Origin: an uncultured Pelagibacteraceae bacterium
GTDB taxonomy: Bacteria; Pseudomonadota; Alphaproteobacteria; Pelagibacterales; Pelagibacteraceae
Assembly: GCA_902607525.1 (NCBI GenBank)
Contig: CACLKK010000003.1
Location: forward strand, 1-47,569
Direction: 5' to 3'
DNA length: 47,569 nucleotides
Positions within the stretch are counted from its first letter, which is position 1. Each line of letters begins with the position of its first letter. The position numbers were made by a program, and so were the translations under genes. This document shows positions 40,178-47,569 of the stretch, in pieces. The notes below the pieces were generated by a model. That model searched no databases, had not been told where the DNA came from, and was given only the letters and a program-made list of their open reading frames with translations.

Positions 40178-40600
40178 ATGCAGTATTATTTTGCTTATGG
40201 CAGCAACTTACATCATGAACAAATGCAACGAAGGTGTCCTAAATGCCGTTATATTAAAAAATATATTCTTAAAGATTTCCAATTAACCTTTAGAAGCAAA
40301 TATGGTGCTGCAGATATAGAAAAAAAAATTGGAAAAAAAGTTTATGGCGCACTATATATAATTTCAAAATGTGCTGAAAAAAGATTAGATATTTATGAAG
40401 AATATCCTACGTTATATAAAAAAATATATTTTAAATATAATGGAAAAAAAGTAATGACTTATACAATGTGTAAAAAAACAAAATTAGTTCCACCTACAAC
40501 GAGATATTTAAATATAATTAAACAAGGATATAAAGATTGTAAGCTTAATATTAAAAGTTTAAAAATTGCCTTGCAGCCAGTAGCACATCTTCAACGCTAA
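40178..40600 (+). CDS. Gamma-glutamylcyclotransferase-like (AIG2/GGCT) protein
   Basis: The 140-residue protein starts with YYFAYGSNLHHEQMQRRCP, the substrate-binding loop of the GGCT fold, and has the catalytic-type acid in LDIYEEYPTLYKK. Family members release 5-oxoproline from gamma-glutamyl peptides or amines, but many small bacterial ones are untested. It begins 6 bp after the CinA-type gene, likely in one message. Its last 50 bp overlap the convergent GT9 gene, the longest convergent overlap in the window. Confidence 0.83.
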   Translation: MQYYFAYGSNLHHEQMQRRCPKCRYIKKYILKDFQLTFRSKYGAADIEKKIGKKVYGALYIISKCAEKRLDIYEEYPTLYKKIYFKYNGKKVMTYTMCKKTKLVPPTTRYLNIIKQGYKDCKLNIKSLKIALQPVAHLQR

Positions 40601-41540
40601 TAGACGAAACTTCTTTTGAATTATTAATTTTTTTACTATCTAAAACTAAAGAGTTTTTATAGTCCGGAGCAAATTTTTCTGAATCAGTTGGTCCAAATAA
40701 TGAAATGATTGGAATTTTACCCAAAGCAAGCATATGCATTACTCCATTATCTATTGTAATTGCTAGATCTAATCTTTTTCCAAGACAAGTAACTAGAGCT
40801 GGTGACTTTAAACTTGTTTCGTGTTCAGGAAATAATGCTGATGGAATTGAATTTTTTATTTTATCTTTAAGTTCATGATATTTTTTTTCTATTAAAAAAA
40901 CAGGCGTTTTATTTTTTTTAACAAACTCTTTTGATAGTTCTAATATTTTATCTAAAGCCCATTGTTTTTTTCTATAAACATTACCTTGTGTAATTGAAAA
41001 ACCAATGTAATTATTGTTTGGCAAAAGTCTTTTAGATTCTTCGATAATATTTTTGTCAATTTTATTTAAATCAAAATCAATTAATTTACAATCTTTCTCA
41101 TACAGCAAGTTAATAGCATTCAAAATTGTATTATTAATTTTTTTTTCTTTTTTAATATTTAATTTAGGTTTGGAAAATTTGAAATTATAGCATGTTGATA
41201 TAAATGATTTATGAGGTAACATTTTTAAAATAAGAGTGTTTCTCATTTTGGATTGAAAGTCTAAAATAAGATCAAATCTTTCTATATTATTTTTTTTAAT
41301 TTTTTTATTTGCATATAAGGCATGCCACCATCTAAAACCAAAATACTTAATATCTAAATTTAAAGCTTGAATTTCACACTTAAAATCTTTTAAGGATGAA
41401 TTAAAATGATTTTCATGAGCCGAAAGGTAATAAAGTTTGGTATTATGAAATTCAGATTTCAATGTATCAATAATAGACATTAGTTGTATTGAGTCTCCAA
41501 CTCCACCACCAGAATTATATATAAGTATACGTTTTAACAT
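40551..41540 (-). CDS. Glycosyltransferase family 9 protein
   Basis: The 329-residue protein is a second heptosyltransferase-like enzyme, distinct from the one at 4601. ILIYNSGGGVGDSIQLMSII is the N-terminal glycine loop and LDLAITIDNGVMHMLALGKIPIISLFGPTDSEKFAP the C-terminal donor site, with N in place of the usual T in the DTG motif (DNG). It probably adds a sugar to lipopolysaccharide in the cytosol. It opens a patch of glycan-type genes. Confidence 0.83.
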   Translation of the reverse strand: MLKRILIYNSGGGVGDSIQLMSIIDTLKSEFHNTKLYYLSAHENHFNSSLKDFKCEIQALNLDIKYFGFRWWHALYANKKIKKNNIERFDLILDFQSKMRNTLILKMLPHKSFISTCYNFKFSKPKLNIKKEKKINNTILNAINLLYEKDCKLIDFDLNKIDKNIIEESKRLLPNNNYIGFSITQGNVYRKKQWALDKILELSKEFVKKNKTPVFLIEKKYHELKDKIKNSIPSALFPEHETSLKSPALVTCLGKRLDLAITIDNGVMHMLALGKIPIISLFGPTDSEKFAPDYKNSLVLDSKKINNSKEVSSISVEDVLLAARQFLNF

Positions 41541-41641
41541 TTATAAAAACACAAAGACTTGATTTTAATAAAAGATAATATTAGATGATACAAAAATAAC
41601 ATTTTTTATAAATAAAATATTTTAATACATTAGTTAAAAAC

Positions 41642-42514
41642 TTGCCAATTCTAAAAAAAATAACAGATATAATTAAAAAAAAAAAAGAAAGAGTAAGAAA
41701 ATTTTTTGGTATACGTTTAATCAAAAGTATACGAGATTTAATAATATTTCAGCAGAATACTGAATTGCAAAGAAAACGGTCTAATCCATTTAATTCTTAT
41801 GGGAAAAGGTGTTTTTCGCAAAATGATGAAGATGGTATTACTCTAGAAATTATAAAACGACTTGGAATAAAAAAAGGTGTTTTTGCCGAATTTGGTCCAG
41901 GTAATGGTACTGAAAATAATACGATAGTTTTAGCAGCATTAAAATGGAAAGGATTCTGGGTGGGTTCAGAAAATTTAGCATTTAAATATAATCCTTCACA
42001 AAACTTCCAGTTTTTAAAAGGGTGGGTAACAAAAGAAAATGTATTAAATTATTATAATGATGGAATTAAAAAATTAAACGAAAAAAAAATAGATATTTTA
42101 AGTTTGGATCTTGATGGAAATGATGTTTATATTCTTGAAGAGTTAATAAAAAAAATTACACACCCGAGTTTAATTATAGCAGAATATAATGCTAAGTTTC
42201 CGCCACCAATAAAATTCAAAATAAAATATGATCCCCAATTTGTATGGAGGGCTGATGACTATTTTGGAGCCTCTCTATCTGAATTTGCAAGCATGTTAGA
42301 AAAACACTCATACAAGCTTATATGTTGCAATTCTCACACAGGCTCAAATGCGTTTTTTGTAAAAAATGATTTTATAGACTTATTTAAAGAAGTTCCAAAA
42401 GAAATTGAAAAAATTTATATAGAACCGCACTATCAACTTTATGAAAGATATGGACACCCTCAATCAATTAAAACAATCGAGTTAATCTTTGAGGAGTTAG
42501 AAAAATTAAATTAA
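41642..42514 (+). CDS. FkbM-like, Rossmann-fold SAM-binding protein
   Basis: The 290-residue protein has FSQNDEDGITLEIIKRLG, then GVFAEFGPGNGTENNTIVLAALKWKGFWVGSE, and DILSLDLDGNDVYILEELI, which resemble the AdoMet loop, acidic strand and DxDG step of FkbM-type methyltransferases. It has no clear hydrophobic N-terminus but begins with a Lys-rich stretch. The start must be TTG 41642, because no ATG is in frame between the upstream stop (near 41609) and residue 200. It lies between a GT9 gene and a sulfotransferase. The acceptor is unknown and the methyltransferase call is tentative. Confidence 0.55.
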   Translation: MPILKKITDIIKKKKERVRKFFGIRLIKSIRDLIIFQQNTELQRKRSNPFNSYGKRCFSQNDEDGITLEIIKRLGIKKGVFAEFGPGNGTENNTIVLAALKWKGFWVGSENLAFKYNPSQNFQFLKGWVTKENVLNYYNDGIKKLNEKKIDILSLDLDGNDVYILEELIKKITHPSLIIAEYNAKFPPPIKFKIKYDPQFVWRADDYFGASLSEFASMLEKHSYKLICCNSHTGSNAFFVKNDFIDLFKEVPKEIEKIYIEPHYQLYERYGHPQSIKTIELIFEELEKLN

Positions 42515-42569
42515 AAATAAAATCTTTTAATTAGTTATAAAATTAATATTATATTTTTGAATAAAAAAA

Positions 42570-43460
42570 ATGATTAAAAAAATAGTAGTGTATCTCAGAC
42601 CAATAAGATACTTGATAAGACTATTTTTTTACTCACCAAAATATTTATTCAAAAAAGTCAATTCTGATCTTAAAAAAGATTTACATTCAAAAAAATTAAA
42701 TAAAAATTTTCATATTGTATGGTGTGCTGGTCTGTGGAAATCTGGGACAAGTCTAATCGAAGATATTTTAAAAGAACTGCCACTAGTTCAGGCTAACAAT
42801 TCATTTTTTCGAATTTATGATGATAGTAATTTAGATCATATTCATGGAATATCTGAAGAAATGTTTAGAAGGTTTCCAAGAAATAAATTAAGCTTTTTAA
42901 AAACACATACACATTTTAATGATCATTATATAAATATAGCAAATAAATATAATTCTAAAATAATAATTTCTTTACGAGATATAAGAGATACCGCAGTAAG
43001 CAGGTATAATCACATAATGAATGATAAAAAAAATCATCTGCATAAAATTTTAAAAAATTTAAATTTTAAAGAAGGTTTCATTAAGTGTGCAAAATTTGAA
43101 GATGATGCAAAATATTCTTATGAGTGGATAAAAGGATGGCAAAACTATTCAAAAAAAAATAATAATTGTTTAATTTTATGGTATGAAGAATTTATAAACG
43201 ATCCTAAAAATTATATTAAAAAAATTATAGATTATTTAGAATTTGATAATATTGATTTAGAAAAGTTACATCTAAAAATTGATTCGGATAAACAATTATT
43301 AAAAAAAAGAAGTTTAAAAGGAAATTTAAGTCAATTTGAACCTAAGACTTTTAATAAAGGAGAATTAGGTCAATGGAAAAAAGCTCTAGACAATGAAACT
43401 TTAGATGAATTTTATTCAATTTTGCCAGACGATATAAGTAAAGTTGAATTCAAAAATTAA
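42570..43460 (+). CDS. Sulfotransferase (PAPS-dependent)
   Basis: The 296-residue protein has the two PAPS-binding motifs: the 5'-phosphosulfate loop WKSGTSLIEDIL near residue 56 and the 3'-phosphate motif SLRDIRDTAVSRYNH near residue 134, plus LKTHTHF before them and LGQWKKAL near the C-terminus, in the place of the usual G-x-x-G-x-W-K motif. It should transfer sulfate from PAPS to a hydroxyl or amine, here most likely on a surface glycan given its neighbours. An N-terminal hydrophobic-basic stretch (RPIRYLIRLFFYSPKYLF) may associate with the membrane. Confidence 0.82.
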   Translation: MIKKIVVYLRPIRYLIRLFFYSPKYLFKKVNSDLKKDLHSKKLNKNFHIVWCAGLWKSGTSLIEDILKELPLVQANNSFFRIYDDSNLDHIHGISEEMFRRFPRNKLSFLKTHTHFNDHYINIANKYNSKIIISLRDIRDTAVSRYNHIMNDKKNHLHKILKNLNFKEGFIKCAKFEDDAKYSYEWIKGWQNYSKKNNNCLILWYEEFINDPKNYIKKIIDYLEFDNIDLEKLHLKIDSDKQLLKKRSLKGNLSQFEPKTFNKGELGQWKKALDNETLDEFYSILPDDISKVEFKN

Positions 43461-43488
43461 AGTCTACGAGGTAAAAAGTAGACTTTAA
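43457..43488 (+). terminator. Hairpin after the sulfotransferase gene
   Basis: An 11-bp stem (43457-43467 with 43478-43488) closes a 10-nt loop GAGGTAAAAA and overlaps the stop codon (43458-43460). No long T-run follows, so termination would be weak; it separates the sulfotransferase from the methyltransferase 96 bp downstream. Confidence 0.5.
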
Positions 43489-43555
43489 CATAATTAAGGA
43501 ATATAAGTTTAAAAAGAACAAAGGTTGCAATATATTCTATATAATCTATTAAAAA

Positions 43556-44206
43556 ATGTTCAACAAATCATACGATCAAAACCTTCAGACGTTATACGAC
43601 TCTAGAGAGGGAGATTTTGAGATTTTCTTTTTTAATTTAAATAGGTATTTAAAATATTTTAATATGAAAACTATTGAAAAAGATACAAAATTTTTAGATC
43701 TTGGATCCTCAGACAATTCATTGCAAAAAGCAATGTTAAAACATGACATAAAAATTAATTCGTTAAACGAGAAAAATTGTAATTTTGAAACAGATAAAAT
43801 AAACTTTGAAAATGATTATTTTGATTTTGTTTTAATGAAGGCTATAATTGAACACATCAACAATCCACAAAATATTTTAAATGAGATAAAAAGAGTTTTA
43901 AAAAAAGGAGGGACAATAATAATTACCACATCAAACTTGAATTTTGTACCTATCAAAAGTTTTTGGAACGACCCAACTCATGTACATCCATATAATGATA
44001 TTTCACTTAAAAATCTATTGAAAATTTTAGATTTCAAAAACATTTGTGTTAGACCTTTTGTATTCAACAAGCCATCTTTCTATTGGAAAATGCCTTTTTG
44101 GTTTGCGGCAAATATACCATTTAAAAATCACACATTTAAAAAGTTTCCTATTCCAAAATTTTTGAGGGGACAATCTACAGTTATGTTAGCCACTGCTAAC
44201 AAATGA
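43556..44206 (+). CDS. Class I SAM-dependent methyltransferase
   Basis: The 216-residue protein has FLDLGSSDNSLQ (AdoMet loop), FDFVLMKAIIEHINNPQNILNEIKRVLKKGGTIIITTSN and a C-terminal part rich in aromatic residues (FYWKMPFWFAANIPF) that could touch a membrane. The LKKGG-x-x-I pattern is that of Methyltransf_11 enzymes found in glycan clusters. The start at ATG 43556 has no obvious ribosome site. The acceptor is not known. Confidence 0.8.
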   Translation: MFNKSYDQNLQTLYDSREGDFEIFFFNLNRYLKYFNMKTIEKDTKFLDLGSSDNSLQKAMLKHDIKINSLNEKNCNFETDKINFENDYFDFVLMKAIIEHINNPQNILNEIKRVLKKGGTIIITTSNLNFVPIKSFWNDPTHVHPYNDISLKNLLKILDFKNICVRPFVFNKPSFYWKMPFWFAANIPFKNHTFKKFPIPKFLRGQSTVMLATANK

Positions 44207-44305: not shown

Positions 44306-45172
44306 ATGAAAAAGGTTATGAGCTCCTTGCTCATAAGTCTTTTTATTTGTTTTGGAGCATGGGCTAAGAGTTTAGAGCAGAAGAAAGTAGAACTTAAGAA
44401 GATTTACGAAGCAGGCGGGATAACAAAGTCTGAATATAATAAAGCACAAGATTTTTTAGAAAATTTTGAAGAAAAAACTAAAGAAAAAAAATCAAAACCC
44501 ACTTTTGATTTAAGTAACAATAAATCTAAAATAAAATCAATTCTCAAAAAAAAAGACAAATATAAAGAAAAAATTACATTAAAAAAGATAGAAGAGTTGG
44601 GTCAGATAATTAAATTTGATGACACATATTTTCCTGATGGAATGATTAAAGTATTTGGTAAAGGTTGTAATAATAGTTTTAAATGTAAAGCCCAAAAAGC
44701 TGGTGGATATATGGCTAAAACTTTTTCAAGAAGCAAATCTTATGGACAAAAAAATCCTGGTGGAATGATAAAAGCAATGGCGATGTTTGAAGTTTTTTAT
44801 GCATCAAAACTTTGGTATTCCAGAAAGTCTATAGAGAGATATAAAGAAAATAATTATAAAGAAGGTTTTTTTTCTAAGAAAAAAAAAGATGAAAATGAAA
44901 TTCGATCTTTGTTTGGTATTAACAAGGGGAGAAAAAGCATGCGAGAAGCTCTAGGCATGAATCTTGAAACTCCATCAAAAGAAGCAATTAAAAAATTTTG
45001 GTTACTTGGTCAATTTTTAGAACTTGGAACTGGCGTTAATAATAAAAAATTGGCTAAAGATTTAAAAGAAAGACAAAAATTACTAGAAACTTATAGAACT
45101 GAAATAGGCAGTTTAAAGAAAAAACTTCAAAATGATTTAGATACGGAGGAAAATGAAAAGTCAGTTGAATAA
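44306..45172 (+). CDS. Secreted protein with SHOCT-like N-terminus, unknown function
   Basis: The 288-residue protein starts with a signal peptide (VMSSLLISLFICFGAWA, then KS), so it should be periplasmic or outer-membrane associated. Residues about 24-55 (LEQKKVELKKIYEAGGITKSEYNKAQDFLE) resemble the short SHOCT helical motif. The middle has a KVFGKGCNNSFKCK pair of cysteines (118 and 124) and GGMIKAMAMFEVFYASKLW; the C-terminus is a charged coiled coil with many Lys/Glu. No known enzyme motif is visible. The next gene starts inside its last codons, so the two are coupled. Confidence 0.7.
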   Translation: MKKVMSSLLISLFICFGAWAKSLEQKKVELKKIYEAGGITKSEYNKAQDFLENFEEKTKEKKSKPTFDLSNNKSKIKSILKKKDKYKEKITLKKIEELGQIIKFDDTYFPDGMIKVFGKGCNNSFKCKAQKAGGYMAKTFSRSKSYGQKNPGGMIKAMAMFEVFYASKLWYSRKSIERYKENNYKEGFFSKKKKDENEIRSLFGINKGRKSMREALGMNLETPSKEAIKKFWLLGQFLELGTGVNNKKLAKDLKERQKLLETYRTEIGSLKKKLQNDLDTEENEKSVE

Positions 45173-47569
45173 TATTCTAATAGTTACACTTGTTATTTTA
45201 TTTTTTACTTTATCTAAATCTTATTCAATAGAGGACGTAACTGAATTTACAGATGCGATTAATGAGGCAAGGGAAGAGTTTAACAATAGTCCAGAAGCTT
45301 CGACAGAACAATCAAAAATTATTGATGAGGCTTTAAAAGAAATTGATAAAGCAACAGAGTATGTTCAAGAAGCCATCAATGCTGACAATACCGAAGATGC
45401 AATTAAAACTTTAGAGTTTATAGAAAAAACTATAGGTGATGTTCAAAGTATCATTCCTCAAGAATTTGGTTCTGATATGTCTAAAATTGATATTTCTGCA
45501 ATGGCAAAAGAAGATATGGAAATTATAACTGAAATAACAACAGAAATGAAAGTTGCTAAAGAAAAAAAAGAAAAAGATTTTATGTCAGATTTAGTTGAAA
45601 TTAATCTAAAAGGTTTTGATACAGCTTCGATTTCTGAAAAACTAAATAGTTTAGGAGTTAATACTATAAAACTCGATTTAGTTATAGATAAAGATAAAAA
45701 AATGGAGACGTGGACTAAAAAAGATTGGGCAGACTCATATACAGGCTCTATCTTAACATATGATGGCCAAGAAGTAGTTCCTGATAAAGAAATATCATGT
45801 AGGATGATAGAATTAGAGGAAAAGTTTCAAAAAAACACTCTTAATATTGAAAATAAAAGAATTGAGTTAGCCAGCCTCAGCACTCAATTAGATCCTTTAA
45901 ATAGTGAGTTACAAAGTTTAGATGAAAAAAAATCATTGTTAACTTCCCAGTATAATGCTGAAATTTCAAAATTAAGTACTGAAGATTTGTCTAGCTTAGA
46001 AACTCAAAAATCAATTGAGTTATCAGAAAAATTAAAAAATGAAATTGAAAATGTAACTAGCGAAGCTCTTAAAGCTGAACAACAATCTGCTTTATTAAAA
46101 ACAGAGATATCCTCACTTAACAAGAGTTTAAATGAACAGATATTGCAAAGTAATAAAATAAAAGAAGATATAAATAACTTAAATTCAAACAAATTAGAAT
46201 TAACTGAAACAATAGCTTTAAAAGCAGCACAACTTAATCAATTAAAAGGTCAAGGTTCCAACTTAAGTTCTAATTCTAATATTACTGAACTTACAGCTAA
46301 ATTAGAGGACTCTGAGAAATTAAAGAGTGAATTATCCAATTTACAGTCACAAATAGAAAATAAAAATTTAGCCGTTAATCAAAAAATTTCTCAAATAAAT
46401 AGTTTAAATACAGAACTTAACCCTCTTACAGATCAAATAAACGCATTGAATGAGAAGAAAGAAAATCTTCAAAAACAATATAATTCTGAATTAACAAATA
46501 TCGACAATTCATTTAATCTTGATGATTTAAGTAAATCAAAAGAATTAGCAGCAAATTTAAATAATGAGATTAACATTACCAGCAATAACATCAAAATTTT
46601 AGAAATAAATTCTTCTAAACTTGACACTGATATTAAAAAGTTAAATTTAGAAATCAATGTAGAAAAAGATGCTTTGAACCAATTGTCAATGAAAATTGTT
46701 TCATCACAAAAGGATTTGAATATAAAAAAAGATATTATAGAAGCTAAAGAATTAGAGCTAGAAAGATTATTAAACACTGATACAACAGATCTTGCTCAAA
46801 CTAATCAAGAGTTAAATCAACAGCTTAAAGAGGTATCTCTTCAAAAAGATTTTATTGAAGCTCAATTTGAAAAATCTATTGATAAAGAAGTAGAGGCGTT
46901 AGAGAGGTATTATTCTGCGCTTGGCGATATTAATAGTGAAAACTATGACCAACAAGCTGTATTTGCAATGAGAGAAGTGGGTGTAATTTTAGATGCTGAC
47001 CCAAGAAAAGCTAATGCATTTGAAATTGAAAAATATGCTACTTATGCAGGTCTTTCAAAGGATTTTATTCAAAGAGGTATTGATGCTGTAAATAATGACG
47101 ATTGGGATACACAAAAAAAAATTGTTAAAGAAATTTCAAAAGCATTAGCAAAGAATCCTAATTTTGTTGTAGATGTTCCTACCGAAGCTGAATTAAATGT
47201 AATGATAGCAGAAGAGAAAGCTCTTATGCAAGCAGTCGAGATTGTAAAAAAAGGTGATGAAGCAAAAAGACAGATCGACTCAATAATAAATGAAAAAACT
47301 AAACCTTATCAGGAATTATCACAACTAAACAAAATTCAAATTCAATCTGCTGCTCTTCGGATAGATTCTAAAGGTTTATCAGTTGCTATGAATTTGTCTC
47401 CAGAGGCAAAATTAGTTAATGAGCAATATAATGAAATAATAAATAACAATAATGAATTCAAATCATTAAAAAAAGAAATAGCAGATAAACAAAATCTGTT
47501 AGCTGCATCTAAAGAAGAAACAAGAAAAATTGTTTCAGAATACGATGCAATTTACAGTGAAAGATTAGA
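45153..47569 (+). CDS. Large secreted coiled-coil protein, C-terminus beyond window
   Basis: I read an unbroken frame of 805 codons from ATG 45153 to the window edge, so the protein is longer still. GGAGGA lies at 45145-45150, just before the ATG, which is inside the last 20 bp of the upstream gene. Residues 1-24 (NNILIVTLVILFFTLSKSYS) form a signal peptide. Residues about 30-210 are helical and acidic with one short mixed region (TWTKKDWADSYTGSILTYDGQ). Residues about 214-585 are a long coiled coil rich in Glu, Lys, Asn, Ser, Leu and Gln with almost no aromatics. Residues about 585-690 (YYSALGDINSENYDQQAVFAM, then DPRKANAFEIEKYATYAGLS) look globular. A second coiled coil follows. I recognise no family; a surface or periplasmic structural role is inference. 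Confidence 0.85.
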   Translation, partial: MKSQLNNILIVTLVILFFTLSKSYSIEDVTEFTDAINEAREEFNNSPEASTEQSKIIDEALKEIDKATEYVQEAINADNTEDAIKTLEFIEKTIGDVQSIIPQEFGSDMSKIDISAMAKEDMEIITEITTEMKVAKEKKEKDFMSDLVEINLKGFDTASISEKLNSLGVNTIKLDLVIDKDKKMETWTKKDWADSYTGSILTYDGQEVVPDKEISCRMIELEEKFQKNTLNIENKRIELASLSTQLDPLNSELQSLDEKKSLLTSQYNAEISKLSTEDLSSLETQKSIELSEKLKNEIENVTSEALKAEQQSALLKTEISSLNKSLNEQILQSNKIKEDINNLNSNKLELTETIALKAAQLNQLKGQGSNLSSNSNITELTAKLEDSEKLKSELSNLQSQIENKNLAVNQKISQINSLNTELNPLTDQINALNEKKENLQKQYNSELTNIDNSFNLDDLSKSKELAANLNNEINITSNNIKILEINSSKLDTDIKKLNLEINVEKDALNQLSMKIVSSQKDLNIKKDIIEAKELELERLLNTDTTDLAQTNQELNQQLKEVSLQKDFIEAQFEKSIDKEVEALERYYSALGDINSENYDQQAVFAMREVGVILDADPRKANAFEIEKYATYAGLSKDFIQRGIDAVNNDDWDTQKKIVKEISKALAKNPNFVVDVPTEAELNVMIAEEKALMQAVEIVKKGDEAKRQIDSIINEKTKPYQELSQLNKIQIQSAALRIDSKGLSVAMNLSPEAKLVNEQYNEIINNNNEFKSLKKEIADKQNLLAASKEETRKIVSEYDAIYSERL

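What the first reader, a model, noticed from the sequence alone, without database searches (positions are those of the whole stretch)
44306..47569. Coupled pair of secreted proteins: SHOCT-like protein and a giant coiled-coil protein
Both genes encode signal peptides, overlap by 20 bp and have strong translation signals (GGAGGA for the second). The second exceeds 805 residues, which is very large for a streamlined genome, and has a long aromatic-poor coiled coil with an internal globular segment. I recognise no family. Such a protein could be a periplasmic spacer, a surface filament or part of an envelope scaffold. This is the best candidate here for an undescribed system.
Basis: partly seen in the sequence, partly recalled or inferred. 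Interest (0 to 1): 0.6.

Follow-up and report, generated by a model that had tools for sequence, protein, structure and literature searches.

The report
SAR11 exported head-and-rod protein pair
Some of the ocean's most abundant bacteria (SAR11) carry an undescribed pair of exported proteins, a small all-helical one and a long rod-like one, which always occur together and were at least twice fused into one protein; the pair is real and conserved, but what it does is not yet known.

Summary
The window is a whole contig of a 58%-complete Pelagibacteraceae (SAR11) genome, and the second gene is cut by the contig end; complete relatives are 1417-1661 aa. Neither protein matches a curated family.

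Profiles of the small protein's core and of the giant's N-terminal head reveal a two-gene system found only in SAR11: in 37 of 397 sampled Pelagibacteraceae, and in none of about 240 other Alphaproteobacteria or 300 Pseudomonadota. Of 40 small genes, 37 have the partner directly downstream or fused to them; two others lie at contig ends, and one has a giant C-terminus directly upstream. Fusion arose at least twice, with no internal signal peptide. The two domains diverge in parallel (r=0.94).

The long partner is a conserved head plus an interchangeable, clade-specific tail of 135-1452 aa (coiled coil, Ala-rich, helical repeats, or Gly/Met-rich with collagen-like ends). Its cysteines come almost only as close pairs (78 of 80).

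The HTCC1062 member is SAR11_1162/1161; SAR11_1161, annotated SbcC, was reported 4.6-fold up under iron limitation.

Most likely this is an obligate exported complex whose long subunit is an envelope or surface rod. Function is inferred, not shown.

The parts
44306..45172 (+). Small exported partner, 288 aa: signal peptide (~1-20), SHOCT-like helix pair (~22-53), Lys-rich linker (~54-86), conserved all-helical core (87-278)
44564..45139 (+). Conserved core domain of the small partner (profile A3)
   Evidence: E=6e-89 in the window's genome; found in 37 of 397 family genomes
45145..45150 (+). GGAGGA purine run before the second start codon, inside the end of gene 1; spacing of 2 nt, not conserved in relatives
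45153..47567 (+). Long exported partner: 5' 805 codons of a gene truncated by the contig end (complete relatives 1417-1661 aa)
45225..45752 (+). Conserved N-terminal head domain of the long partner (profile A4), the only part shared by all clades
45783..46916 (+). Aromatic-poor coiled-coil rod (aa ~211-588) with an internal duplication (aa ~213-380 vs ~381-575)
   Evidence: the single-copy state is seen in L007-L012
46830..47229 (+).

Best explanation
The two genes encode an obligate exported complex. The small helical protein binds the conserved N-terminal head of the long protein after both cross the inner membrane by Sec. The rest of the long protein is a clade-specific rod or tail, here a coiled coil with a globular interruption, that works as a spacer, tether or fibre in the SAR11 envelope, either in the periplasm or at the surface. 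Shown here: the genes form one conserved, co-inherited unit that was fused at least twice, is under purifying selection, and was found only in SAR11 in these samples. Strongly inferred: export, from the leaders and from cysteines that occur almost only as close pairs. Inferred only: direct binding, the head as the docking site, and the structural role of the rod.
For: Pairing: of 40 small genes in 39 loci, 37 have the head directly downstream (27) or fused to them (10); of the other three, two lie at contig ends and one has a giant C-terminus directly upstream. In independent scans of the same 397 genomes, all 28 genomes with the head are among the 37 with the small gene (hypergeometric 1.7e-35). 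Fusions: 10 single-ORF forms need at least two changes on the tree, forced by well-supported branches; those read in full show no second signal peptide at the junction. Parallel divergence: r=0.94 against a maximum of 0.32 in 2000 permutations. NG86 dN/dS is 0.07-0.29 for small or fused genes and 0.03-0.34 for heads. In long proteins with at least two cysteines, 78 of 80 lie within 8 residues of another, against about 5 expected, which fits disulfide loops in an oxidising compartment. Modular tails: heads are homologous across clades, whereas most pairs of clades show no detectable tail similarity. Expression: SAR11_1161, the HTCC1062 member, was detected by mass spectrometry and was 4.59-fold more abundant 12 days into iron limitation (PMC2864753).
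Against: There is no direct evidence of interaction, location or filament formation. The model of the long protein is poor (mean pLDDT 62, head mostly below 50, only 7 sequences), so head docking has no structural support. Fusion and adjacency also fit a shared pathway without direct binding. No conserved outer-membrane exporter or anchor lies beside the pair, so surface display has no visible route. Several long proteins (L007, L057, L062, L072-L078) have no cysteines.
Confidence: 0.5

Rival explanations
1. The long protein is a surface-exposed, diversifying fibre or decoy facing phages, grazers or particles, with the small protein as export or anchoring partner.
For: Tails differ between clades while the head is conserved. 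The pair sits at many chromosomal sites, several in a variable stretch beyond sfsA/cinA/GGACT or beside nadK and rlmB/tuf, in the window next to glycosyltransferase, sulfotransferase and methyltransferase genes. SAR11_1162 opens hypervariable region HVR3 of HTCC1062 (PMC2217521). Distribution is patchy, about 9%.
Against: No outer-membrane exporter, barrel, lipobox or anchor is conserved with the pair. Within clades the tails are under purifying rather than diversifying selection (dN/dS 0-0.42).
Confidence: 0.25
2. The exported pair is a ligand- or metal-handling periplasmic protein, for example a stress-induced sponge, and the tails are binding arrays.
For: SAR11_1161 rises under iron limitation. 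One clade has tails of about 16% Met and 23% Gly, and Met-rich exported proteins can bind copper (general knowledge). The HTCC1062 pair lies next to SAR11_1163/1164, whose transcripts respond to iron and sulfur stress.
Against: The rise is one protein at one late time point. The clade in the window does not have Met-rich tails. No binding domain matches.
Confidence: 0.12
3. Polymorphic secreted toxin or anti-phage defence system: conserved trafficking head with swapped C-terminal effectors.
For: Conserved N-terminus with variable C-terminus; patchy distribution in variable regions.
Against: Most tails read in full end in low-complexity Ala-, Gly- or Pro-rich sequence rather than a compact domain. 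No immunity-like gene follows consistently. PADLOC hits fall only on coiled coils; PHROGs gave only a weak coiled-coil tape-measure match and unnamed families.
Confidence: 0.05
4. The long protein is an SbcC/SMC-type cytoplasmic ATPase, as SAR11_1161 is annotated.
For: An NCBIfam SMC model hits weakly at 2.1e-6, 25.8 bits against a cut-off of 567. The name sbcC is in the literature.
Against: Signal peptide; matches limited to the coiled coil; no Walker A pattern in 35 of 37 long or fused proteins, and only isolated matches in the other two; homologues of 317-321 aa are far too short.
Confidence: 0.02

Closest known systems
SAR11_1162 and SAR11_1161 of Ca. Pelagibacter ubique HTCC1062 (unknown; 'sbcC')
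   Same: Same two-gene unit: small core E=3e-77 and head E=7e-54, 4-nt overlap, leaders on both. Locus tags follow from gene order and from the 248- and 445-nt spacers quoted in PMC5069961.
   Different: Lacks the SHOCT-like segment; the tail is only 137 aa and ends in CPTC instead of a rod of more than 600 aa.
SHOCT domain (Pfam PF09851)
   Same: Two-helix segment after the signal peptide in the long-form small proteins; G370 passes the cut-off.
   Different: N-terminal here rather than C-terminal; absent from the short forms; only a minor part of the protein.
Periplasmic coiled-coil spacers such as TolA, and coiled-coil surface rods of other bacteria
   Same: Exported long helical rod (works-like comparison only).
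   Different: No TolA C-terminal domain or other known end domain, an obligate small partner, and tails that are not coiled coil in several clades.
SMC/SbcC/MukB coiled coils
   Same: Sequence-profile matches over the heptad region only.
   Different: Exported; no ATPase domains.

Membership tests
SMC/SbcC ATPases | ATPase head with Walker A and full-length family score | tested here: not met
   25.8 bits against a cut-off of 567; no Walker A pattern in the window protein, isolated matches in two of 37 members
SMC/SbcC ATPases | Cytoplasmic location (no export signal) | tested here: not met
   Hydrophobic leader with cleavage-like site in the window protein and leaders in all listed long partners; by eye, no SignalP
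TolA / Tol-Pal | TolA family domains | tested here: not met
   Only TolA_bind_tri at E=0.0087, below cut-off, on the coiled coil of L010; window protein none
S-layer or autotransporter proteins | SLH, RTX, YadA-anchor or autotransporter barrel domain | tested here: not met
   No such Pfam match in the window protein or in the other long homologues scanned; the window protein lacks its C-terminus
SHOCT-domain proteins | PF09851 match above cut-off | tested here: inconclusive
   Window protein: no match; relatives G020 22.6, L012 18.0, G370 27.9 bits against a cut-off of 27
Phage tail tape-measure proteins | PHROG family match and phage context | tested here: not met
   18-bit partial match on the coiled coil of L007 only; no relatives of the small protein in viral contigs or phage records
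Anti-phage systems (PADLOC) | Match of both components to a known system | tested here: not met
   Only coiled-coil matches to JetC, LmuB and DruC in L007; none for the small protein
Known folds (PDB) | Structural match of the small protein | tested here: inconclusive
   Foldseek best E 0.76; VIA-align best Z 5.5, usual for helical bundles; the long protein's model was too poor to search
This SAR11 pair family | Small core (A3) and head (A4) adjacent or fused | tested here: met

The most novel reading that the evidence does not exclude
SAR11 bacteria carry a lineage-specific modular export system in which a fixed head-plus-adaptor unit carries interchangeable rods (coiled coil, helical repeat, collagen-like), forming undescribed fibres or spacers of the envelope that vary between strains and help set surface properties or envelope architecture.
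Probability: 0.35. Interest if true: 0.75.

Novelty: categorically new. Interest (0 to 1): 0.55.

Why it matters
SAR11 genomes are highly streamlined, yet some keep a gene of 4-5 kb for an exported rod plus a dedicated partner. Neither protein belongs to a family named in Pfam, NCBIfam, PHROGs, PADLOC or the PDB sequences. The cultured member has been filed under a misleading name (SbcC) although it was detected and more abundant under iron stress, so the system can be tested in a cultured strain. 'Categorically new' refers to the protein families and their head/tail layout; a new mechanism has not been shown.

Tried and rejected
Pfam, NCBIfam, PHROGs and PADLOC scans of the pair gave essentially coiled-coil or sub-threshold noise. 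PDB sequence search gave no hit for the small core; the head gave a repeat protein and viral helical stalks, taken as helical-composition noise. Foldseek against PDB and viral models, and VIA-align, gave nothing convincing for the small protein. The model of a long relative (residues 1-1165 of L007) was too weak to use. No relatives of the small protein in viral contigs or phage records, so a phage origin is unsupported. No homologue in about 240 Alphaproteobacteria and 300 Pseudomonadota. The missing 3' part of the gene was sought in the same genome and not found. A universal third partner was looked for in the flanks and not seen; flanking genes follow the insertion site. A literature search for SAR11_1161/1162 found two papers.

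Full report
The observation. The two ORFs are as described: 44306-45172 and 45153-47567, same strand, 20-nt overlap, leaders on both. The window is the complete contig C3 of a 770,570-bp, 50-contig genome estimated 58% complete, so the second gene is cut by the assembly. Its remainder was not found elsewhere in the assembly. The GGAGGA run lies only 2 nt before the ATG and is not conserved.

Relatives. A scan of named genome contigs returned six relatives, all labelled Pelagibacteraceae, i.e. SAR11. Complete long partners are 1560, 1612, 1417, 1509 and 1661 aa. The window protein differs from them by a duplication in the coiled coil. Profiles of the small core (A3) and of the first ~180 mature residues of the long partner (A4) were then used on whole genomes. 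The small core occurs in 37 of 397 Pelagibacteraceae, and the head in 28 of the same 397, all of them among the 37 (hypergeometric 1.7e-35). The nine genomes with only the small core in that comparison are mostly distant members whose head falls under the E-value limit of the genome scan; where flanks were fetched (e.g. L073, L075, L077) the head is present next door at about 1e-10 to 1e-12. None of the other Alphaproteobacteria (about 240) or Pseudomonadota (about 300) sampled has the core.

Arrangement. Over 39 loci, 40 small genes were found. Thirty-seven have the head directly downstream (27 split) or fused (10). One split case, G253, has an interrupted small gene and a 204-nt gap. The other three are two contig ends (G259; G387, which also looks chimeric) and one case, G344, where a long-partner C-terminus precedes the small gene. 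The remaining split genes overlap by 1-41 nt (by the longest ORF; 20 nt in the window) or are 1-5 nt apart. The fused forms are of two kinds, 575-698 aa and 913-916 aa; the tree of the small core needs two changes, and well-supported branches force two. The fused proteins read in full carry one leader at the N-terminus and none at the junction. Distances in the two domains correlate at 0.94, against at most 0.32 in 2000 permutations; neighbouring genes are expected to share history, so this shows co-inheritance rather than contact. dN/dS is well under 1 for small gene, head and tail in eight pairs.

Anatomy. The small protein is modelled as all-helical: the core is mostly at pLDDT about 80-95, followed by a long C-terminal helix, with an N-terminal SHOCT-like segment and a low-confidence Lys-rich linker. 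No solved or viral structure resembles it convincingly. In the long protein only the head is shared by all clades. Behind it lie clade-specific tails: coiled coil with non-coiled inserts and an Ala-rich end (605-1452 aa, the 605 being the truncated window); short Ala/Glu-rich (135-137 aa); 531-542 aa in one fused type; 953-959 and 591-604 aa types; 197-218 aa in the other fused type; a 389-aa tail with a tandem repeat of 108 nt (36 residues); and 576-650 aa Gly/Ala/Met-rich tails, several with collagen-like Pro-Gly ends. Similarity between tails of different clades was limited to three pairs of clades. Cysteines in long proteins with two or more lie almost only in close pairs, often at the very C-terminus (PCGEPSC, CPTC, CTGNC). 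The window's fragment has a single Cys, at 216.

Sites. The pair occurs at many chromosomal places. Several members, the window's included, sit in a variable stretch beyond sfsA-cinA (window, G390, G214, G279, G245, G370, G186, G259) or beside nadK or rlmB-tuf (L010, G391, G344, G387). Others are at nadA (short forms), hemE (913-916 aa fusions), clpX, priA and elsewhere (representative names). In the window the neighbours are a family-9 glycosyltransferase, a sulfotransferase and a methyltransferase.

Link to the literature. G045 is a single contig of 1,308,759 bp, the size I recall for HTCC1062. In it the two genes beside the pair are separated from their neighbours by 248 and 445 nt (L047 coordinates), exactly the spacers given for SAR11_1163/1164 in PMC5069961. 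By gene order the pair is therefore SAR11_1162 and SAR11_1161. SAR11_1162 is listed as unknown, first gene of hypervariable region 3 (PMC2217521). SAR11_1161, under the name sbcC, 'ATPase involved in DNA repair', is among 17 proteins listed as more abundant under iron limitation, ratio 4.59, P 0.011, at day 28 (PMC2864753). The SbcC name is not supported here.

Mechanism. The safest statement is that the two products are parts of one exported unit. The most likely working model is head-adaptor docking with a rod or fibre as output; whether the rod stays in the periplasm or reaches the surface is open. My confidence: one exported unit about 0.85; the full model, with a structural rod in the envelope or at the surface, about 0.5.

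Noticed in passing
L047:5613-6572 (HTCC1062 SAR11_1161): Annotated in the literature as SbcC, ATPase involved in DNA repair; it is a 319-aa protein with a leader and no ATPase signature, so the annotation looks wrong.
   Followed up: yes
L077:6822-9272, L075:3624-6146, L072-L074, L076, L078: Long partners of one clade have tails of about 23% Gly and 16% Met, several with collagen-like Pro-Gly ends, odd for bacteria reported to depend on reduced sulfur sources.
   Followed up: partly
L077:9278-10312, L075:2592-3608, L072:3548-4558: In the Gly/Met clade a third gene with a leader, weakly like glycosyl hydrolase family 10 (below cut-off), follows the pair; a sulfatase gene lies nearby (Pfam match in L075; similar by eye in L072 and L073).
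   Followed up: partly
L048:11477-13793 (G344; same region as L012:2-2318): Reversed order: a long-partner C-terminus (548 aa, cut by the contig end) overlaps the start of a small gene by 44 nt; a normal pair follows after nadK and one more gene.
   Followed up: partly
L011:2-1696 / L063 (G387): The small gene is split, its N-terminal part on the opposite strand at the contig end and its C-terminal part before the giant; probably an amplification chimera of a single-cell assembly.
   Followed up: no
L070:5709-7484 (G253): Small gene interrupted by a stop codon beside an intact 329-aa partner; possible decay of one copy.
   Followed up: no
window 40551-44206: Variable stretch next to the pair: family-9 glycosyltransferase, a 290-aa ORF without a Pfam match, a sulfotransferase and a methyltransferase, likely surface glycan genes.
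   Followed up: partly
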